Assembly (NCBI GenBank): GCA_035936835.1
Contig: DASYVT010000088.1
Coordinates: forward strand, 1-34,599
Source: Candidatus Methylomirabilota bacterium
Lineage (GTDB): Bacteria > Methylomirabilota > Methylomirabilia > Rokubacteriales > CSP1-6
Length of the DNA: 34,599 nucleotides
Reading direction: 5' to 3'
In this document: in pieces, positions 20,178 to 28,416 of the stretch
Numbering within the stretch: the stretch's first letter is position 1
Layout of the letters: each line of letters begins with the position of its first letter
Program-made: the position numbers and the translations under genes
The notes under the pieces: generated by a model
Databases searched by the model: none
The model's input: the letters and a program-made list of their open reading frames with translations, nothing else
Told to the model about the DNA's origin: nothing

Positions 20178-20276
20178 GGAGTAAGCGCAGAGGGCGGCCT
20201 GTTCTCGGCGCGATGCGTCAGAGCCTCGCGTCCTCGAGCAAGAGCGCCTATAATCGTGCTCGAAGGCCATGCGGAC

Positions 20277-20927
20277 ATGAGCGCCATCACGCGATCGCTT
20301 CGCGGCATCGGGGCCGCCGTGAAATCACGGCCGTGGCTGTTCCTCGCGGTCGCTCTCGGCGTCTTCGCCCTCGACATCCTGGTCCCGCCCCTCGTCCTGA
20401 CCCTCGCTCGCAAGCCCGTCACCGCCTTCACCATCAACCCCTGGCTGCCCTCCCTGCCCGACTACCTCGCCTCCGGGCGCGGCTCGCTCGGGGAGCGCTT
20501 CACCAAGGCGTGGGGCCTGGCGCTCTTCTGGTTCTCCGCGGACAATTCGTTCGGGCTCGAATGGGGCTTCGCCGTCACGACGGCCGACCTCGCGCGCTTC
20601 GCCTTCATGTCCCTCCTCGTCGCGGCGTACTTCGCGCTCTGGATGGAGCGCCGCGCGGCTCTCCCCGTCGCTCCGTGGGGCCGCGGGGCCGGAGGATCAG
20701 GCGGCGTGCTGGGAGCGCTGGGCGGCATCTTCGGGCTCTCCACCGGCGGCTGCACCGTGATGGGCTGCGGCGCGCCGGTCCTTCCGGTGATCGGGCTCGC
20801 CTTCGCGGGCCTCAGCAGCACCACGATCAAGTGGATGTCCGACCTCTCAACGATCGGCACGGCGGCGGTGCTGATCGGTCTGGTATCAGCCGTCGGCTGG
20901 CTAGGCTACCGCACAGGCCGCCGATAA
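20277..20927 (+). CDS. Membrane protein of unknown function with a GGCTVMGCG motif
   Basis: This 216-residue protein has about five hydrophobic segments: WLFLAVALGVFALDILVPPLV near residue 25, a second around WGLALFWFS (residue 80), FAFMSLLVAAYFALWM, a Gly-rich GGVLGALGGIFGLSTGGCTVMGCGAPVLPVIGLAF stretch and GTAAVLIGLVSAVGWLGY. The Gly-rich stretch holds two cysteines five residues apart (C160 and C165) inside or at the edge of the membrane, which could bind metal or form a redox pair. No family is recognised. ATG at 20277 was chosen, with a weak GAAGG ten bases upstream; a GTG seven codons earlier is also in frame. It is divergent from livK. Confidence 0.72.
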   Translation: MSAITRSLRGIGAAVKSRPWLFLAVALGVFALDILVPPLVLTLARKPVTAFTINPWLPSLPDYLASGRGSLGERFTKAWGLALFWFSADNSFGLEWGFAVTTADLARFAFMSLLVAAYFALWMERRAALPVAPWGRGAGGSGGVLGALGGIFGLSTGGCTVMGCGAPVLPVIGLAFAGLSSTTIKWMSDLSTIGTAAVLIGLVSAVGWLGYRTGRR

Positions 20928-21063: not shown

Positions 21064-21870
21064 GTGCTGACCCGCGAGTTCGGGCCCACCGGTGTCAAGG
21101 TCAGCGTCATCGGCCAGGGCACCTGGCACATGGGCGAGGACCGGCGCCTCAAGAAGGGCGAGATTGCGGCGCTCCGGCTCGGCATCGAGCTGGGCCTGAC
21201 CCACATCGACACCGCTGAGATGTACGCAGACGGCCAAGCCGAGGAGATCGTCGCTGAAGCGGTGGCGGGGCAGCGCGACCGCGTCTTCATCGCCACCAAG
21301 GTCCTGCCCTCGAACGCGTCGTACAAGGGCACGCTCGACGCCTGCGAGCGCTCGCTCAAGCGCCTGCGTACCGACCACGTGGACCTCTACCTCTTGCACT
21401 GGTGGAGCGGGCAGCACCCCATCGAGGACACCATGCGCGCCTTGGTAGCCCTCTGCGCATCGGGCAAGACGCGCTTCGCCGGCGTGAGCAACTTCGACGT
21501 CGAGCAGATGCGGGCGGCCCAGGCGGCGCTCGGCAAGGTCCCCCTCGCCTGCAACCAGGTGCTGTACCACCTTCGCGACCGCGACATCGAGAAGGACGTC
21601 GTGCCGCACTGCGAGCGGGAGCGGATCGCCGTCGTGGGCTACACGCCGCTGGCGCGCGGCGGCTTCATGCGCGGGGCGGTCGCCGACGTCGCCAAGCGGC
21701 TCGGCAAGACACCGCGCCAGGTCGCGCTCAACTTCCTCACCCGCCGCCCGTCGCTCTTCGCCATCCCGAAGGCGACGAGCCCCGAACACGTCCGGGAGAA
21801 CGCGGGCGCGCTCGACTTCACGCTCACCCCTGAAGATCTCTCGGCCATCGATGCCGAGCACCGGAGATAG
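21064..21870 (+). CDS. Aldo/keto reductase
   Basis: This 268-residue NAD(P)H-dependent oxidoreductase has the AKR barrel fold. The catalytic tetrad is visible: D49 and Y54 in HIDTAEMYADGQAEE, K79 in IATKVLP and H112 in LYLLHWW. The GVSNFDVEQM phrase (about residue 140) and the coenzyme-binding region AIPKATSPEHVRENAGAL near 240 are canonical. The protein is a little shorter than the 280-330 usual for the family. It begins with GTG at 21064 and ends three bases before the molybdenum hydroxylase gene, so it is the first gene of a redox operon. The substrate, an aldehyde or ketone, is unknown. Confidence 0.9.
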   Translation: MLTREFGPTGVKVSVIGQGTWHMGEDRRLKKGEIAALRLGIELGLTHIDTAEMYADGQAEEIVAEAVAGQRDRVFIATKVLPSNASYKGTLDACERSLKRLRTDHVDLYLLHWWSGQHPIEDTMRALVALCASGKTRFAGVSNFDVEQMRAAQAALGKVPLACNQVLYHLRDRDIEKDVVPHCERERIAVVGYTPLARGGFMRGAVADVAKRLGKTPRQVALNFLTRRPSLFAIPKATSPEHVRENAGALDFTLTPEDLSAIDAEHRR

Positions 21871-21873
21871 ACC

Positions 21874-24159
21874 ATGCCCCCTGTGTCCAGCATCGGCCAG
21901 TCCCTTCGCCGCGTGGACGGCGGCGAGAAGGCGGCGGGCCTCACGCGCTTCGCCGCGGACCTCGTGCAGACGAACGCGTTGCACGCCCGCCTCGTGCTCT
22001 CGCATCACGCTCACGCGCGCATCCTTAAGGTGAACGCGCACGCCGCCAGGGCCCTGCCCGGCGTGGTCGGCGTCTTCACCGGGCGCGACCTGCCGCTCAC
22101 CAAGCAGGATCCGTCCGACCGCAACCGCTGCCCTCTGGCGCTCGACACCGTCCGCTTCGTGGGGCACCCCGTGGTCGCGGTCGTGGCCGAGAGCGAGGCC
22201 GTCGCCGAGGACGCGGCGGCGCTGGTCGAGATCGAGTACGAGATCCTGCCCGCCGCGGTCGACGCGCTCGAGGCCATGCGGCCCGACGCCCCGCTCGTGA
22301 GCGAGCTTGGCGGCCAGGACGATGACGCCGAGCTGGGCCAGCACGGCGCGGCCGGCGGCGGCGCGGCGCTCAAGGAAGCGCTCGGGTCCAACATCGCGAG
22401 CACCCAGCACTTCACGCGCGGCGACGTCGCCAAGGGCTTCGCCGAGGCGGACGTCGTGATCGAGCGCACCTACCGCACGAGCGTCGTCCACCAGGGCTAC
22501 CTCGAGCCGCGCGCGGCCGTGGCGCAGGTGGACGCGCTCGGCAACGTTACCGTGTGGACGACCACCCAAGCGCTCTTCTACACGCGCTCGGAAGTCGCCG
22601 AGGCCCTGGGCCTGCCCGAGCACCAGGTGCGCATCGTCGCGACGCCGATCGGCGGCGGCTTCGGCGGCAAGTTCGTCCTCCTCGAGCCGCTCGCCGCGGC
22701 GCTCGCGATCGCGCTCAGGCGATCCGTCTCGCTCGTGCTCTCGCGCACCGAGGAGTTCCTGACGACGACCCCCGCGCCCGCGAGCGTTTTCGAGCTCAAG
22801 ACCGGCATCGCCAAGGACGGCAGGCTGACCGCCCTTCAGGCGCGGGTCATCTTCGACGCCGGCGCCTATGCGGGCGCGCCGCTCGGTATCGCCTGTCTGA
22901 TGCTCGGCGGCTGCTACCGGCTGCCCCACATGGACATCCGCGGCTACGAGGTGCTGACCCACAAGACGGGCAACGGCGCCTACCGCGCTCCCGGCGCCGT
23001 CCAGGCGGCCTTCGCGCTGGAATCCCAGATGGACCTGATGGCCCGCGCGCTCGGCATGGACCCGCTCGACCTGAGACTCCTCAACGCGTCGTCCGAGGGC
23101 GATCTCATGGCCAACGGCAACAAGTGGCCGCGCATCGGTCTCCGCCCCTGCCTCGAGCGGCTCAAGGAGGAGCGCGGCCGCCGCAAGGCGTCCGCGGGAT
23201 CTAATCCGCGCTTGAAGCGTGGGGTCGGGGTCGCAATTGGCGGCTGGATGGGCGGCATCGAGCCGGCCAACGCGGTCTGCCGGCTCGAGCGCGACGGCAC
23301 GCTGTCCATCATCGTGGGCACGGTGGACATGAGCGGAACCAACACGGCCTTCGCCCAGATCGCCTCGGAGGCCTTTGGTCTTCCCACGGGACTCATCCGG
23401 GTGGTGAACGCCGACACCGAGGCCGCGCCCTACGCCGGCTCGAGCGGCGGGAGCAAGATCACCTACACTGTCGGCGCGGCCGTCGAGAAGGCAGCGCGCG
23501 ACGCGAGGCAGCAGCTCTTCGCCATCGCCGCGCGTCACCTCGAGGCGGCGGTGGAGGACCTCGAGCTGGTCGACCGGGCGATCCAGGTCCGGGGCGCGCC
23601 CGGCAAGGCCGTGCCGATCGCCGCGCTCGCCAAGGCGTCGATGCAGTTCGCGGGCAAGTACGAGCCCGTGTACGGGCGTGGCTCGACGGCGACCATCGCG
23701 CGCTCGCCCGCCTTCGCGGCGCATCTCGCCGAGGTCGAGGTGGATATGGAGACCGGTCACGTGCGAGTGCTCGACCAGGTCGTGGTCCAGGACGTAGGGC
23801 GCGCGATCAACCCCGCGGCCATCGAAGGCCAGATCCAGGGCGCCGCCGCCCAGGGGGTCGGGTGGGCCCTCCTCGAGCGGATGCCGTACGACGCGCACGG
23901 CCAGCTGCTCTCGGCAACGTTCATGGACTACGCCATGCCGGCGAGCGACACCGTCGCCGCGGTGCGCGCCGTGCTCGTGGAGGTGCCATCCGAGCTGGGC
24001 CCCTTCGGCGCGAAGGGAGTCGGCGAGCCGCCCGTGGTCGGCGCGCCCGCCGCCATCGCCAACGCGGTCATGGACGCGACAGGACACCGCTTCACCGAGC
24101 TGCCCATCACGAGCGAGGCCGTGAGCCGCGCGGTCTTAGGAGCCATCGTCCATTCGTAA
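21874..24159 (+). CDS. Xanthine dehydrogenase-family molybdopterin-binding (large) subunit
   Basis: This 761-residue molybdenum hydroxylase subunit oxidises a C-H bond at a Mo-cofactor site. The N-terminal a/b hammerhead domain runs to about residue 110 (SIGQSLRRVDGGEKAAGLTRFAADL). GGGFGGK (260-266) is the conserved cofactor loop. AYRAPG (369-374) aligns with the active-site loop that reads AYRCSFR in true CO dehydrogenase, so this is not a form I CoxL. The catalytic glutamate is E718 in GAKGVGE near the C-terminus. The usual partners, a 2Fe-2S subunit and a FAD subunit, are not in this operon. It lies between an aldo/keto reductase gene and an MFS gene that overlaps its stop. Confidence 0.93.
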   Translation: MPPVSSIGQSLRRVDGGEKAAGLTRFAADLVQTNALHARLVLSHHAHARILKVNAHAARALPGVVGVFTGRDLPLTKQDPSDRNRCPLALDTVRFVGHPVVAVVAESEAVAEDAAALVEIEYEILPAAVDALEAMRPDAPLVSELGGQDDDAELGQHGAAGGGAALKEALGSNIASTQHFTRGDVAKGFAEADVVIERTYRTSVVHQGYLEPRAAVAQVDALGNVTVWTTTQALFYTRSEVAEALGLPEHQVRIVATPIGGGFGGKFVLLEPLAAALAIALRRSVSLVLSRTEEFLTTTPAPASVFELKTGIAKDGRLTALQARVIFDAGAYAGAPLGIACLMLGGCYRLPHMDIRGYEVLTHKTGNGAYRAPGAVQAAFALESQMDLMARALGMDPLDLRLLNASSEGDLMANGNKWPRIGLRPCLERLKEERGRRKASAGSNPRLKRGVGVAIGGWMGGIEPANAVCRLERDGTLSIIVGTVDMSGTNTAFAQIASEAFGLPTGLIRVVNADTEAAPYAGSSGGSKITYTVGAAVEKAARDARQQLFAIAARHLEAAVEDLELVDRAIQVRGAPGKAVPIAALAKASMQFAGKYEPVYGRGSTATIARSPAFAAHLAEVEVDMETGHVRVLDQVVVQDVGRAINPAAIEGQIQGAAAQGVGWALLERMPYDAHGQLLSATFMDYAMPASDTVAAVRAVLVEVPSELGPFGAKGVGEPPVVGAPAAIANAVMDATGHRFTELPITSEAVSRAVLGAIVHS

Positions 24160-25291
24160 CATCATCCTGCTCGGGCTGACCTCGCTCCTGACCGACATCT
24201 CGAGCGAGATGGTCTACCCCCTCGTGCCCTTCTTCCTCACGGCGGCGCTCGGCGCGAGCCCGGCGATGCTGGGGCTCATCGAAGGCCTGGCCGAGAGCGT
24301 GGCGAGCGTCCTCAAGGTCTTCGCCGGGTTCATCTCGGACCGGATCGGGAAGCGCAAGGGACTGATCATCGCCGGCTACGGCGCGGCCGCCCTCGGCAAG
24401 CTGCTTCTCGCGCTGGCAGCGGGCTGGGGCATGGTGCTGACGGCGCGAGTCGTTGACCGGCTCGGCAAGGGCATACGAACGGCGCCGCGGGATGCCCTGA
24501 TCGCCGACAGCGCCCACGAGGACAAGCGCGGCCGCGCCTTCGGGCTCCACCGGACCCTCGACACCTGGGGCGCGGTGGCGGGCGTAGGCCTCGGCTACTG
24601 GTTCTTCACGCGCATGCCCGGCGAGTACGCGCGCGTCTTCCTGGTAGCGCTCCTCCCCGCGGTGCTGGGGGTGCTCGTGCTCCTAGCCGTCCGCGAGCCC
24701 AAGCACGGGAGGCTGCGTGTGGCCCCGCCTCGCCTCAGCTGGAACATGCTGCCGAGGCGGCTACAGCTCTTCCTCGTGATCACGCTCCTCTTCACCTTAG
24801 GCAACTCGTCCAACGCCTTCCTCCTGCTCCGGGCGCAGAGCCTCGGCTTCACGGCCGCGGCGGCGATTCTCCTCTACGGCGCCTACAACGCGAGCTACGC
24901 TCTGTCCTCCTATCCGGTCGGGCTGGTGTCTGACCGCATCGGCCGCAAGACTCTTCTCGTCGCGGGGTACAGCTTCTACGGAGTCGTCTACCTGGGGTTC
25001 GCCCTCCTCGACGCCGCGAGCCACGCGTGGATCACCTGGGCGCTCTTCGCACTCTACGGGCTTTACAGCGGATTCACCGATGGCGTCGAGAAGGCGCTGG
25101 TCTCCGACCTCGCGCCTCGCGAGCTGCGCGCGACGGCCATCGGGCTCCATGGGACCTTGGTGGGCATTGGACTCTTCCCGGCCTCCTTCATCGCGGGCCA
25201 GCTTTGGACATGGCTCGGCCCGGAATCCACCTTCTATTTCGGCAGCGGCATGGGCTTCCTCGCGTCCCTCGGCCTTCTGCTGGTGCTCTGA
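24152..25291 (+). CDS. MFS transporter, probably translated from an ATT start
   Basis: This major facilitator transporter has about 379 residues if translation starts at ATT 24152, giving IRNIILLGLTSLLTDISSEMVYP, the normal first helix of this MFS subgroup. The first in-frame ATG (24209) would remove most of that helix. AGGAG lies nine bases before the ATT and there is a stop just upstream, so ATT is the best-supported start, although CTG codons at 24167 and 24176 are in frame. Motif A appears as FISDRIGKRKG and is repeated in the second half as LVSDRIGRKT. Other phrases include LGKGIRTAPRDALIADS. It overlaps the molybdenum hydroxylase stop by 8 bp. An exporter role is likely by family. Confidence 0.88.
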   Translation: MRNIILLGLTSLLTDISSEMVYPLVPFFLTAALGASPAMLGLIEGLAESVASVLKVFAGFISDRIGKRKGLIIAGYGAAALGKLLLALAAGWGMVLTARVVDRLGKGIRTAPRDALIADSAHEDKRGRAFGLHRTLDTWGAVAGVGLGYWFFTRMPGEYARVFLVALLPAVLGVLVLLAVREPKHGRLRVAPPRLSWNMLPRRLQLFLVITLLFTLGNSSNAFLLLRAQSLGFTAAAAILLYGAYNASYALSSYPVGLVSDRIGRKTLLVAGYSFYGVVYLGFALLDAASHAWITWALFALYGLYSGFTDGVEKALVSDLAPRELRATAIGLHGTLVGIGLFPASFIAGQLWTWLGPESTFYFGSGMGFLASLGLLLVL

Positions 25292-25307
25292 GACGGGAGA
25301 ACACAGG

Positions 25308-26219
25308 ATGAGAGTCGGCATCTCGCTGACGAGCCACCACGACGTCACGGACCCGCGCGAAGGCGCGCGCTGGATGATCGAGCGGGCCCAGGCCGCGCGG
25401 CACGCGGGCCTCGACTCGCTCTTCCTTGGCGACCACCACGCCGTCCCCAAGCCCTATTACCAAAACGTGCCGATGCTCGGGCGGCTCCTCGCCGAGTGGG
25501 ACGAAAAGGCCGCGGGCTGCCTGTTCCTCCTGCCGCTCTGGAATCCCGTGCTAGTCGCCGAGCAGGTCGGCACGCTGGCCGCCATCGCGCACGGCCGCTT
25601 CATCTTCCAGTGCGGGCTCGGCGCCGACGAGGCGCAGTTTCTCGCGATGGGCGCCAACATCAAGCAGCGCCCCTCGGCCTTCGAAGAGTCCTTCGCCCTC
25701 GTGAAGAAGCTTCTCGCGGGCGAGACCATCTCATCGCAGGGACGCTTCGTCGTCGAGAACGCGCGGGTGACGCCGCGCCCCGCCGAGCCCGTCGAGTACT
25801 GGATCGGCGCCAGCGCGCGAGTCTCCATCGACCGCGCGGCGCGCATCGCCGACGGCTGGCTCGCCTCGCCCGGCCTCACCATCGACCAGGCCCGCGAGCA
25901 GGCGGCCTGGTACCTGGACGGCTGCGCCAGGTACGGGAAGAAGCCGGCGGCGGTGGCGATCAGGCGGGATATCTACGTCGGAGAGTCAGCGGCCGAGGCC
26001 GAGGCGACGGGCCAGGCCATGGTCAAGGCGGGGTATCGCGGCTTCGACCCGAAGGCGCTCTGCTGGGGCTCGGTGGAGCAGGTCGTGGAGAAGTTCCGCG
26101 CCCTCGAGCCGCTCGGTTACACCGACATCATCGTCCGCCACCTCACCGACGACCACCCCAAGGTCCTGGGCTCCCTCGCCCGCCTGGCCGACGTGCGCAA
26201 GGCGTTCCAGAACACCTAG
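25308..26219 (+). CDS. Luciferase-like (LLM class) flavin-dependent oxidoreductase
   Basis: This 303-residue TIM-barrel flavoprotein belongs to the bacterial luciferase-like monooxygenase group (FMN or F420 dependent). The N-terminus MRVGISLTSHHDVTDPREGARWMIERAQAARHAGLDSLFLGDHH is the family opening. FIFQCGLGADEAQFLAMG (about residues 98-115) and EYWIGASARVSIDRAARIADGWL (about 165-187) correspond to conserved cofactor-binding regions. A GGGAG site precedes the ATG by eight bases, and the gene follows the MFS gene by 16 bp, so it closes the four-gene redox operon. The substrate is unknown and the cofactor cannot be decided by eye. Confidence 0.9.
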   Translation: MRVGISLTSHHDVTDPREGARWMIERAQAARHAGLDSLFLGDHHAVPKPYYQNVPMLGRLLAEWDEKAAGCLFLLPLWNPVLVAEQVGTLAAIAHGRFIFQCGLGADEAQFLAMGANIKQRPSAFEESFALVKKLLAGETISSQGRFVVENARVTPRPAEPVEYWIGASARVSIDRAARIADGWLASPGLTIDQAREQAAWYLDGCARYGKKPAAVAIRRDIYVGESAAEAEATGQAMVKAGYRGFDPKALCWGSVEQVVEKFRALEPLGYTDIIVRHLTDDHPKVLGSLARLADVRKAFQNT

Positions 26220-26224
26220 CCTGG

Positions 26225-26809
26225 TCAGGGGCTGCGGGCGCCCCAGAGGCCGGCCGCGACGCGCGCCTCGTAGTAGTGGCCGTTGGGATGCAGGAGCGCC
26301 GTCTGGACGAGGACCCATGCGCGGCTCCTCCCACCGGCCCAAAACTCCGTGAGCCATTCGGCGCCGGGGGCGACGACGCCCTCGGTGAGGACGACGCTCC
26401 TGACGCGCTCCGCCGGAACGAGGGCCTCGAGGTCGCTGCCGCGCAGCGTCTCGATGACCTCGAGCGTCCGCGTCGTCACCGCATCCCAGTAGCCCTTGAG
26501 CGCTTGGAGGTCGATGCGCGCGCTCAGCTCGTCCACCTCGGCGTCCTTCATCCCCGTGCCGACGTCGCGTCGCGGCACGCCGAGGCTTTCGAGCCATCCC
26601 GCATCGAGAACCTGGGGCCGGTCGGCCAGGAAACGATTCAGCGCGACGTCCTCGATACGCGCCGCGTGCCAGAGAAGCCACGCGACGGTGTTGACGCCCG
26701 GATGGGGCCGCCCGCGCAGGTGCGGCTCGGGAAGCCGGGAAAACAGCCCGTCGATCAGGCTTCCGTGGAGGTCACCGTAGCGGAGCAGCAGGAAGCTGAT
26801 GGCGTCCAT
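26225..26809 (-). CDS. DinB-family (DinB_2-like) putative metal-dependent protein
   Basis: This 194-residue helical protein fits the DinB/YfiT four-helix-bundle superfamily. WLLWHAARIEDV supplies H48 on one helix, and HPNGH supplies H174 and H178, an HxxxH pair near the C-terminus; together these are the expected three metal ligands. Members act as thiol S-transferases or have unknown stress roles. The ATG at 26809 lies 5 bp after the stop of the peptide-binding-protein gene, so it is the last gene of that minus-strand operon, with no clear ribosome site of its own. It converges with the luciferase-like gene at a distance of 5 bp. Confidence 0.82.
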   Translation of the reverse strand: MDAISFLLLRYGDLHGSLIDGLFSRLPEPHLRGRPHPGVNTVAWLLWHAARIEDVALNRFLADRPQVLDAGWLESLGVPRRDVGTGMKDAEVDELSARIDLQALKGYWDAVTTRTLEVIETLRGSDLEALVPAERVRSVVLTEGVVAPGAEWLTEFWAGGRSRAWVLVQTALLHPNGHYYEARVAAGLWGARSP

Positions 26810-26814
26810 GCCGG

Positions 26815-28416
26815 CTACGGGCTGATCCACACCTTCATGAAGGTGTTGTTGTCGTAGGTGGTGAGCCCAGGCTTGTAGTTCTGCAGGCGCTTGTCCTTGA
26901 AGAACCAGCCCTCGACCCATGCCACGGCCACCGTGGCGGTGTCGCCACGCGTGAGGATGTAGCGCTGGAGCTCCCAGTAGGCCTGCCGGCGCTTGTCCTT
27001 GTTCGACTCTTTCAAGCCGCGCTCCGCCAGCTCGTCGATCTTCGGATCGGACATGCGGCCGTAGTTGCTCCCGCCCTCGGTCGTGTAGGCGATGTGGAAG
27101 ACGCCCGAGGGATCATTGACGTCCATGGCCCGGTCCTGGCTGGCGATGAGCGTGAAGTCGCCCTTGCCCCAGGCAGCGTAGCCCGCCGCGCTCTCGTGCG
27201 TCTTGAGCGTCCCGCGGATGCCGGCCTTGCGAAGCTGGGCGATGACGAGCTGAGCACGGTCGACGTAGTTGCCGACGGAGCGCACCGCGACCTCGATGTC
27301 CACGCCGTTCGGGTAGTGCTTCTCGACGAGCTTCTTGGCCTCGGCGATGTCTCCGTCCTTCGGCTGGCGGCAGCCCGGGATCTTGTTGACCTCCTCGAGC
27401 GGCAGGGCGAAGTCGCCGGACAGCTTCGGATCGAGGATGCCGCAGGGCACGCCCGCGCCTTCGAGAGCCTTGGCGACCATCTCCTGTCGGTCGATCGCCA
27501 GGTTGACCGCTCGCCTCAGGTCCGGGTTGTTGAAGGGCGGCTTCTGCGAGTTCAGGTAGATGAGAAAGATCGTGTTGATAGAGGCCTGGTAGATGTCCAC
27601 GTCCTGGCGGGCCCGGCCCAGCTCGTCGGCCTGCGTCTTGCGCATCGGCGGCCAGGCATCCCAGAGCATGATCTTGCCGGCTTTCGCGGCGGCGAGCTGG
27701 GTCGGCCCGCCGATGAGGATGAACTGCTTGACGCCGTCCACATACGGCAGGCCCGGGATGAAGTAATTCGGATTCTTCTCCCACTCGATCACGCTGCCGC
27801 GCTCGTACTTCTTGAACTTGAAGGGCCCCGTGCCGATCTGGGCTTCTGGTTGGTTGAGATCTCCGTATTTCGCGAGGATGTGTTTCGCGGCCACGCGACA
27901 CCAGGCCGAGGCCAGCGACGGCAGGAACGGCGCGGCCGGGAACTTGAGCCTGAACTGGACGGTATTCGCGTCGACCATCTCGACCGCGGCCACCATGGGC
28001 TTGAGCGAGGCCCCGCACTTCGGGCTCTGGAAGTCCTTGCTGAGGATGCGGTCGAAGGAGGCCTTGACGTCGGCCGCGCTGAAGGGCTGGCCGTCGTGCC
28101 ACGTAACGCCCTTTCGGAGGTAAAACGTGTACGTCTTCCCGTCGGGCGAGACCGTCCAGCGCTCGGCCAGGTCGCCGGCGATCTTGGCCGGATCATCGGG
28201 ATCATAGTGCAGGAGCCCGCTGTAGACGCCCGCCGTCGCCTGCTGGACGACCAGGGGAGACTCGGCGTGAACGTCGAGGCGGCCCGGATCGCCGTAGTCG
28301 AACCACGTGAGGATGCCGCCGGGACGCGGCTTGTCCTGCGCCTGCGCCGCGGGCGCGGCGAGCGCGGCGATCAGCGCGAGGGAAGCCAGGAGGCGGAGAG
28401 TCTTCGAGGTCGTCAT
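26815..28416 (-). CDS. ABC transporter substrate-binding protein, family 5 (DppA/OppA type)
   Basis: This 533-residue periplasmic protein has a Sec signal (MTTSKTLRLLASLALIAALAAPAAQAQDK). The mature chain shows standard SBP_bac_5 phrases: LAERWTVSPDGKTYTFYLRKGVTWHDGQPFSAADVKASFDRI (about residues 84-125), IGTGPFKFKKYERGSVIEWEKNPNY (about 196-220) and NPDLRRAVNLAIDRQEMV (about 297-314). AAAAGGAG stands eight bases before the ATG. It follows two DppB/DppC-like permease genes. Ligands in this family include peptides, nickel and glycosides, so a peptide is only the default guess. Confidence 0.94.
   Translation of the reverse strand: MTTSKTLRLLASLALIAALAAPAAQAQDKPRPGGILTWFDYGDPGRLDVHAESPLVVQQATAGVYSGLLHYDPDDPAKIAGDLAERWTVSPDGKTYTFYLRKGVTWHDGQPFSAADVKASFDRILSKDFQSPKCGASLKPMVAAVEMVDANTVQFRLKFPAAPFLPSLASAWCRVAAKHILAKYGDLNQPEAQIGTGPFKFKKYERGSVIEWEKNPNYFIPGLPYVDGVKQFILIGGPTQLAAAKAGKIMLWDAWPPMRKTQADELGRARQDVDIYQASINTIFLIYLNSQKPPFNNPDLRRAVNLAIDRQEMVAKALEGAGVPCGILDPKLSGDFALPLEEVNKIPGCRQPKDGDIAEAKKLVEKHYPNGVDIEVAVRSVGNYVDRAQLVIAQLRKAGIRGTLKTHESAAGYAAWGKGDFTLIASQDRAMDVNDPSGVFHIAYTTEGGSNYGRMSDPKIDELAERGLKESNKDKRRQAYWELQRYILTRGDTATVAVAWVEGWFFKDKRLQNYKPGLTTYDNNTFMKVWISP

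What the first reader, a model, noticed from the sequence alone, without database searches (positions are those of the whole stretch)
21064..26219. Four-gene redox operon with an orphan molybdenum hydroxylase large subunit
Aldo/keto reductase, molybdopterin subunit, MFS exporter and luciferase-like flavoenzyme are packed with gaps of 3, -8 and 16 bp. The iron-sulfur and FAD subunits that normally pass electrons from the Mo site are absent from this operon, so the enzyme must borrow partners or use another acceptor. The AYRAPG loop rules out a form I CO dehydrogenase. The set looks like a catabolic or detoxification route with export.
Basis: partly seen in the sequence, partly recalled or inferred. 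Interest (0 to 1): 0.68.

Follow-up and report, generated by a model that had tools for sequence, protein, structure and literature searches.

The report
Lone molybdenum-enzyme subunit borrowing partners
A soil bacterium carries the catalytic part of a molybdenum enzyme without the two helper parts that normally carry its electrons away, and the same lone part recurs in many other bacteria, probably because several catalytic parts share one set of helpers made elsewhere in the genome.

Summary
Aldo/keto reductase, molybdenum-hydroxylase large subunit (L), MFS transporter and luciferase-like flavoenzyme are packed as described (MFS needs an ATT start), with no iron-sulfur (S) or FAD (M) gene on the contig. 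The genome (a Rokubacteriales assembly) has 17 L, 8 S and 5 M hits; every S and M adjoins an L, so none is free. The four-gene set is young: complete only here and in one congener (whose reductase has an internal deletion); two other congeneric loci lack the transporter. L is what lasts. It belongs to an old, mostly partnerless clade across several phyla. Two closed Chloroflexota genomes carry such orphans with every S paired elsewhere. Yet orphans track S genome-wide: in 131 Chloroflexota genomes, L and S occur in the same 105, and L outnumbers S in 59. In two genomes an S-L-M operon has lost L but kept S and M. Best reading: orphan L is an active catalytic subunit that docks on S/M made by another operon, a shared electron-transfer module. 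A self-sufficient L is not excluded. No biochemistry was done. I found no description of this in the papers I could search.

The parts
20256..20927 (+). membrane-protein-like ORF (223 aa, no Pfam or NCBIfam hit) upstream of the AKR; conserved upstream of AKR-L in the congeners seen
   Evidence: no family; orthologue in G001, G002, G004 and L095
21064..21870 (+). aldo/keto reductase, 268 aa
   Evidence: PF00248 E 4.1e-62; kept in G002, L095, G004; internal in-frame deletion in G001
21874..24159 (+). molybdenum hydroxylase (xanthine oxidase family) large subunit, 761 aa, without S and M partner genes
   Evidence: PF01315, PF02738, PF20256; best solved relative 4-hydroxybenzoyl-CoA reductase alpha, 335 bits; dN/dS 0.10-0.19
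22567..22569 (+). Gln232 in TTTQALF, the conserved molybdopterin-site glutamine position (role recalled)
   Evidence: alignments
22651..22671 (+). GGGFGGK loop, residues 260-266
22978..22995 (+). AYRAPG loop, residues 369-374 (form I CODH has AYRCSFR here)
24025..24027 (+). Glu718 in GVGEPP, aligned with a conserved Glu of HcrA, QorL and CoxL (catalytic base, role recalled)
24138..24142 (+). AGGAG, Shine-Dalgarno-like, before the ATT start of the MFS
   Evidence: sequence
24152..25291 (+). MFS transporter; ATT start (the first ATG in frame is 24209)
   Evidence: PF07690 1.8e-42; only in G000 and G001
25308..26219 (+). luciferase-like (LLM) flavin oxidoreductase, 303 aa
   Evidence: PF00296 5e-37; nearest NCBIfam models F420-type but all below cut-off; follows L directly in G002 and L095

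Best explanation
The window's large subunit is a working molybdenum-hydroxylase catalytic subunit that has lost its own S and M genes. It most likely assembles in trans with iron-sulfur (S) and flavin (M) subunits made by one of the complete S/M/L operons of the same genome. One electron-transfer module then serves several interchangeable catalytic subunits. Shown: no S or M in cis; no free S or M in the genome; purifying selection and intact motifs; an old and widespread orphan clade; genome-wide co-occurrence of L with S; S-M pairs kept after loss of their own L. Inferred: physical docking in trans, which operon donates, and the substrate. The AKR and LLM genes are genus-level companions that may act on the same compound, and the MFS is a late addition.
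For: (1) Own genome: 17 L, 8 S, 5 M hits; all S and M adjoin an L, so orphans cannot have an unlinked private partner of the known kinds. (2) 131 Chloroflexota genomes: L and S occur in the same 105, neither in 26, never one alone; L outnumbers S in 59, all S-positive (Fisher p 1.5e-8, no correction for kinship). Rokubacteria and class: both in the same 27 of 38 relatives. (3) G084 and G088: CoxG-S-M with L missing between S and M. In G084 a 20-aa match to the C-terminal part of L remains in the gap (tblastn E 0.031). S and M have dN/dS 0.05-0.06 (G084 versus G063). Both genomes also hold orphan-type L. (4) Closed contigs G129 (5,258,541 bp) and G131 (4,890,986 bp): 4 L, 2 S, two L orphan in each, one from the window's clade. 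(5) Paired Bacillota members (L147, L132, L144, L165) lie inside the orphan clade (L147, L132, L144 again). (6) L dN/dS 0.10-0.19; motifs as in paired kin.
Against: No binding or activity data. The co-occurrence of L and S could reflect shared need for molybdopterin and XdhC-type maturation rather than docking, and S is mostly co-counted with its own L. Two assemblies have L but no S: G062 (2 L, 4.0 Mb) and G094 (1 L, 1.6 Mb). The time since L was lost in G084 and G088 is unknown, so the low dN/dS of S and M may predate the loss, and both are draft assemblies. In those genomes the S-M type belongs with the second (AYRGAGR) L group, not with the window's clade. The conservation comparison of orphan and paired L could not be tied to the S-binding face. 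AlphaFold with 9 rows gave a poor model (pLDDT 45).
Confidence: 0.5

Rival explanations
1. Self-sufficient L: the orphan works without [2Fe-2S] and FAD subunits, either handing electrons from the Mo site directly to a soluble acceptor or doing redox-neutral chemistry (transhydroxylation or hydration).
For: Lone L is the common state over a deep clade (35 orphan, 25 contig-edge, 4 paired of 64 rows). Neighbours in Chloroflexota that were scanned are mostly housekeeping genes with no shared redox partner. No free S/M in the own genome or in two closed genomes. G062 and G094 show L without S.
Against: 0 of 131 Chloroflexota genomes and 0 of 38 Rokubacteria-class relatives have L without S. Paired members sit within the clade. 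G062 and G094 are assemblies of unknown completeness. The motifs show no orphan-specific change.
Confidence: 0.22
2. Local partners: the LLM flavoenzyme and/or AKR of this operon take the electrons.
For: Tight packing with L; LLM follows L in G000, G001, G002 and L095.
Against: Orthologues in six other genera (G013, G036, G026, G038, G018, G005) and orphans in other phyla lack AKR and LLM neighbours where flanks were seen; G001 AKR carries a large internal deletion.
Confidence: 0.1
3. Degenerate or non-enzymatic paralogue drifting after loss of partners.
For: G034 holds only a 321-aa piece; some other L of the own genome without S/M nearby (L070, L071) lack the conserved Gln.
Against: Window L: dN/dS 0.10-0.19, intact Gln232, GGGFGGK, Glu718, full length in relatives.
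Confidence: 0.06
4. Assembly artefact: S and M lie next to L in reality but fell at contig breaks.
For: Many loci are drafts; 25 of the 64 clade rows end near a contig edge.
Against: Window contig has 21 kb and 10 kb around L; two single-contig genomes show the same; S numbers are too low to pair all L.
Confidence: 0.02

Closest known systems
4-hydroxybenzoyl-CoA reductase HcrABC (Thauera, PDB 1rm6)
   Same: Closest solved relative of L by sequence, aligned end to end, 335 bits; same three L domains
   Different: HcrA has dedicated S and M partners (recalled); TIGR03194 scores 473 against a cut-off of 994.55
CO dehydrogenase form I / form II CoxMSL
   Same: Same L family and, in sister clades, the same M-S-L operon plan
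   Different: AYRAPG, not AYRCSFR or AYRGAGR; no S/M in cis
Two-subunit S-L molybdenum hydroxylases (isoquinoline oxidoreductase-like; name recalled)
   Same: Show that M can be dispensed with; three S-L pairs in the own genome (C143b, C47, C159)
   Different: They keep S next to L and form a separate branch (7 of 7 S-L rows); the window L has neither
Shared electron-transfer modules, such as multiple Rieske oxygenases served by few ferredoxins (recalled; the SAR202 paper PMC6946804 reports many ring-hydroxylating alpha but few beta subunits and reads them as monomeric, passages seen)
   Same: Many catalytic subunits, few partner subunits
   Different: Different enzyme family; sharing for molybdenum hydroxylases is my inference

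Membership tests
Xanthine oxidase family molybdenum hydroxylase, large subunit | Ald_Xan_dh_C + MoCoBD_1 + MoCoBD_2 in that order | tested here: met
   93, 257 and 233 bits, all above cut-off
Xanthine oxidase family molybdenum hydroxylase, large subunit | GGGFGGK-type loop, conserved Gln and catalytic Glu | tested here: met
   G260-K266, Q232, E718
Xanthine oxidase family heterotrimer | S ([2Fe-2S]) and M (FAD) genes with L | tested here: not met
   none on contig C88; none seen beside orthologues
Form I CO dehydrogenase (CoxL) | AYRCSFR loop | tested here: not met
   AYRAPG; the motif does occur in L204 in the same alignment; TIGR02416 316 of 991.15 bits
Form II CoxL | AYXGAGR loop | tested here: not met
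   AYRAPG; motif definition from the PMC11771112 passage
4-hydroxybenzoyl-CoA reductase alpha | TIGR03194 cut-off 994.55 bits | tested here: not met
   473 bits
Xanthine dehydrogenase XdhA | NF043082 cut-off 780 bits | tested here: not met
   459.8 bits
Catalytic subunit sharing S/M in trans | physical complex with S/M of another operon | not testable with these tools
   only co-occurrence and L-less S-M pairs

The most novel reading that the evidence does not exclude
An ancient lineage of molybdenum hydroxylases works as a single catalytic subunit with no iron-sulfur or flavin subunit at all, passing electrons from the Mo site straight to another acceptor or doing redox-neutral chemistry.
Probability: 0.2. 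Interest if true: 0.85.

Novelty: new variant of a known kind. Interest (0 to 1): 0.6.

Why it matters
Molybdenum hydroxylases are taught as fixed S-M-L or S-L units, and genome surveys count coxL-like genes as if each were an enzyme. If many L share few S/M modules, activity predictions for Rokubacteria and Chloroflexota soils and springs change. A single S or M knock-out would also silence a whole set of oxidations. If instead the orphans are self-sufficient, the textbook electron path is not obligatory. Closed genomes and culturable bacteria (Chloroflexus, Solirubrobacter) make either case testable now.

Tried and rejected
Private unlinked S/M in the own genome: rejected, all 8 S and 5 M adjoin an L. 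Dedicated alternative redox partner beside orphans: Pfam scans of chosen neighbours gave ABC, housekeeping, nitroreductase, cupin, isochorismatase and others, nothing shared. A 97-100 aa gene upstream of Chloroflexota orphans looked like a possible ferredoxin; the Roseiflexus one is GatC and the two Thermomicrobiales ones scanned have no Pfam hit. The missing GQG motif as an orphan signature: rejected, paired sisters lack it too. Conservation contrast of orphan and paired L: 67 columns conserved in both, 15 lost in orphans, 8 lost in paired; the sets differ in size (28 and 10) and it was not interpretable. AlphaFold on 9 rows: pLDDT 45, not used, no fold search run.

Literature: searches and passages of PMC11771112, PMC5395668, PMC6946804, PMC10444878, PMC6784897; none of the passages seen describes partnerless L or shared S/M. 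PMC6784897 counts 1,889 coxL homologues in 466 genomes, and its main text has no occurrence of CoxS or CoxM. Most subscription papers are not in the library.

Full report
OBSERVATION. One search lists the ORFs and the junctions. AKR 21064-21870 is followed after 3 bp by L 21874-24159. The MFS overlaps L by 8 bp if it starts at ATT 24152, and LLM 25308-26219 follows after 16 bp. In G001 the codon at the MFS start position is ATC and similar residues precede the first ATG, so a non-ATG start is plausible. NCBIfam models of characterised L enzymes all fall far below their cut-offs. The best solved relative is HcrA, 335 bits over almost the whole length.

WHERE IT IS. The window is contig C88 of a 4.1-Mb, 236-contig genome (99.94% complete, 2.5% contamination). 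Orthologous loci in named records are Candidatus Rokubacteria / Rokuibacteriota / Methylomirabilota, and I take the genome to be Rokubacteriales by inference.

PARTNERS IN THE OWN GENOME. PF02738 finds 17 L, PF01799 8 S, PF00941 5 M. With gene calls on fetched stretches and profile searches, every S and every M adjoins an L: C86/C78 (split over a contig break), C97, C123, C198 and C143a are complete sets, and C143b, C47 and C159 are S-L pairs. L without S/M: C88 (the window), C113, C215, C162 and C99. C191, C114, C164 and C87 end at or near contig edges and are undecided.

RELATIVES. Of 60 relatives searched, nine carry close orthologues (66-97%): G001, G002, G004, G005, G013, G018, G026, G036, G038. 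No S or M was seen next to any. G001, G013 and G038 have at least 3 kb on both sides; G002 is split inside L but both flanks are seen; G018 has 2.4 and 8.7 kb; G004, G005, G026 and G036 run into contig ends. G034 has a 321-aa piece. A second group (46-48% identical) in G006, G009, G011, G016, G020, G022, G030 and G032 is a complete M-S-L operon in 8 of 8. With G012 (a partial hit) added to the second group and G034 to the first, the two groups share no genome (11 and 9 of 39, hypergeometric 0.03, kinship ignored).

THE FOUR-GENE SET. It is complete only in the window and G001. In G002 and in record VAYJ01000047.1 (L095) L overlaps LLM by 4 bp and there is no MFS. Between G000 and G001, dS is 0.10 for L, 0.14 for LLM and 0.53 for the MFS, so the MFS has another history; the G001 AKR lacks an internal in-frame stretch. 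L dN/dS is 0.19 (G001), 0.10 (L095) and 0.11-0.14 (G002 halves). In the other genera L has other neighbours.

A WIDE ORPHAN CLADE. The genome-contig scan returned 80 loci. After removal of duplicate rows, 130 L were placed on a tree (FastTree). Orphan means no S/M profile hit within 4.5 kb and at least 3 kb held on both sides. The window lies in a 64-row clade (support 100): 35 orphan, 25 edge, 4 paired. Its sister sets are nearly all paired (16 rows: 15 SML, 1 edge; 10 rows: 9 SML, 1 M-L). A mixture-model tree of 43 chosen rows gives 29 rows (19 orphan, 7 edge, 3 paired; SH-aLRT 94) beside 10 paired rows (94). Record titles include Rokubacteria, Thermomicrobiales, Sphaerobacter, Roseiflexus, Chloroflexus, Solirubrobacter, Bacillota, Armatimonadetes, Deltaproteobacteria and Lentisphaeria. 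The paired ones are titled Bacillota: L147 (L-M-S) and L132/L144/L165 (M-S, then further genes, then L; in L132 the gene before L is XdhC). Support for the backbone is moderate, so one loss with regains and several losses cannot be told apart. A second orphan set (L190-L198, AYRGAGR loop) lies elsewhere on the tree.

CLOSED GENOMES. G129 (one contig, 5,258,541 bp) and G131 (4,890,986 bp) have 4 L and 2 S each; both S are next to an L. Two L in each are orphan, one from the window's clade (86% to L141) and one from the second set.

CO-OCCURRENCE WITH S. Chloroflexota, 131 genomes: S and L in the same 105, neither in 26, L more numerous than S in 59. Fisher test of L excess against S presence: p 1.5e-8. 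Class of Chloroflexus, 46 genomes: 39 both, 6 neither, 1 L only (G094, 1.6 Mb); L excess in 30 of 39 S-positive and 1 of 7 S-negative (p 0.003). Rokubacteria and class: both in the same 27 of 38 relatives (the TALLY line); summed over 26 Rokubacteriales genomes, the own one included, 533 L and 221 S. Of 34 genomes chosen for orphan-type loci, 33 have S; the exception G062 has 2 L. Confounder: S-negative genomes may lack the whole molybdenum-cofactor path, and most S are counted with their own L. I counted L excess from the tables by eye.

L-LESS S-M PAIRS. In G084 and G088 the order CoxG-S-M remains (CoxG confirmed by Pfam for G084) where Roseiflexus has CoxG-S-L-M. S is 91% and 82-83% and M up to 87% and 68% identical to the Roseiflexus genes. 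The G084 gap (170 bp) matches the last part of L over 20 residues (E 0.031); the G088 gap (68 bp) has no match. dN/dS for S and M of G084 against G063 is 0.048 and 0.064. In G117 a 3-kb contig shows S-M without L between them, but it ends nearby. The first two were found among 15 S loci fetched from 10 genomes. They show that S and M can persist without their own L while orphan L are present. They do not show which L is served.

MECHANISM. Shown: intact L under selection, no cis partners, no free partners, co-occurrence with S at genome level. Inferred: docking on S/M of a complete operon, electrons Mo to 2Fe-2S to FAD as in the trimers. The substrate is unknown. Nearness to HcrA does not make it a reductase of aromatic CoA esters. 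The LLM and AKR may act on the same compound in this genus.

NOVELTY. The fold and the reaction class are known; a large, old set of partnerless L and a shared S/M module are, as far as searches show, not described in the held papers.

Noticed in passing
L182 7483-9771 and L184 7197-9381: CoxG-S-M operons that have lost the L gene; G084 keeps a 20-residue match to the C-terminal part of L in the gap
   Followed up: partly
L190-L198: A second, separate set of orphan large subunits with AYRGAGR loop in Chloroflexus and Roseiflexus genomes
   Followed up: partly
window 24138-24209: MFS gene with ATT start (ATC at the same place in G001) after an AGGAG, overlapping the L stop
   Followed up: partly
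window 20256-20927: Membrane-protein-like ORF with a GGCTVMGCGAP motif, no Pfam or NCBIfam hit, conserved upstream of AKR-L in the congeners seen
   Followed up: no
L070 and L071 (own-genome L of contigs C114 and C99): Own-genome L without S/M seen nearby (C114 lies close to a contig edge) in which the otherwise conserved TTQ glutamine is replaced; possibly degenerate or altered
   Followed up: no
L095 (VAYJ01000047.1): Record titled Actinobacteria AC_55 is nearly identical in L to Rokuibacteriota AR4 (L096) and syntenic with the window; probably a mislabelled or mixed bin
   Followed up: no
L078 11476-12057: G001 aldo/keto reductase has a large internal in-frame deletion
   Followed up: partly
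G006, G009, G011, G012, G016, G020, G022, G030, G032 versus the orthologue genomes: The 47% identical complete M-S-L operon and the orphan orthologue never occur in the same genome (0 shared, 9 and 11 of 39)
   Followed up: partly
window 26225-26920 (-): DinB-family gene resembling mycothiol transferase models, below the NCBIfam cut-off
   Followed up: no
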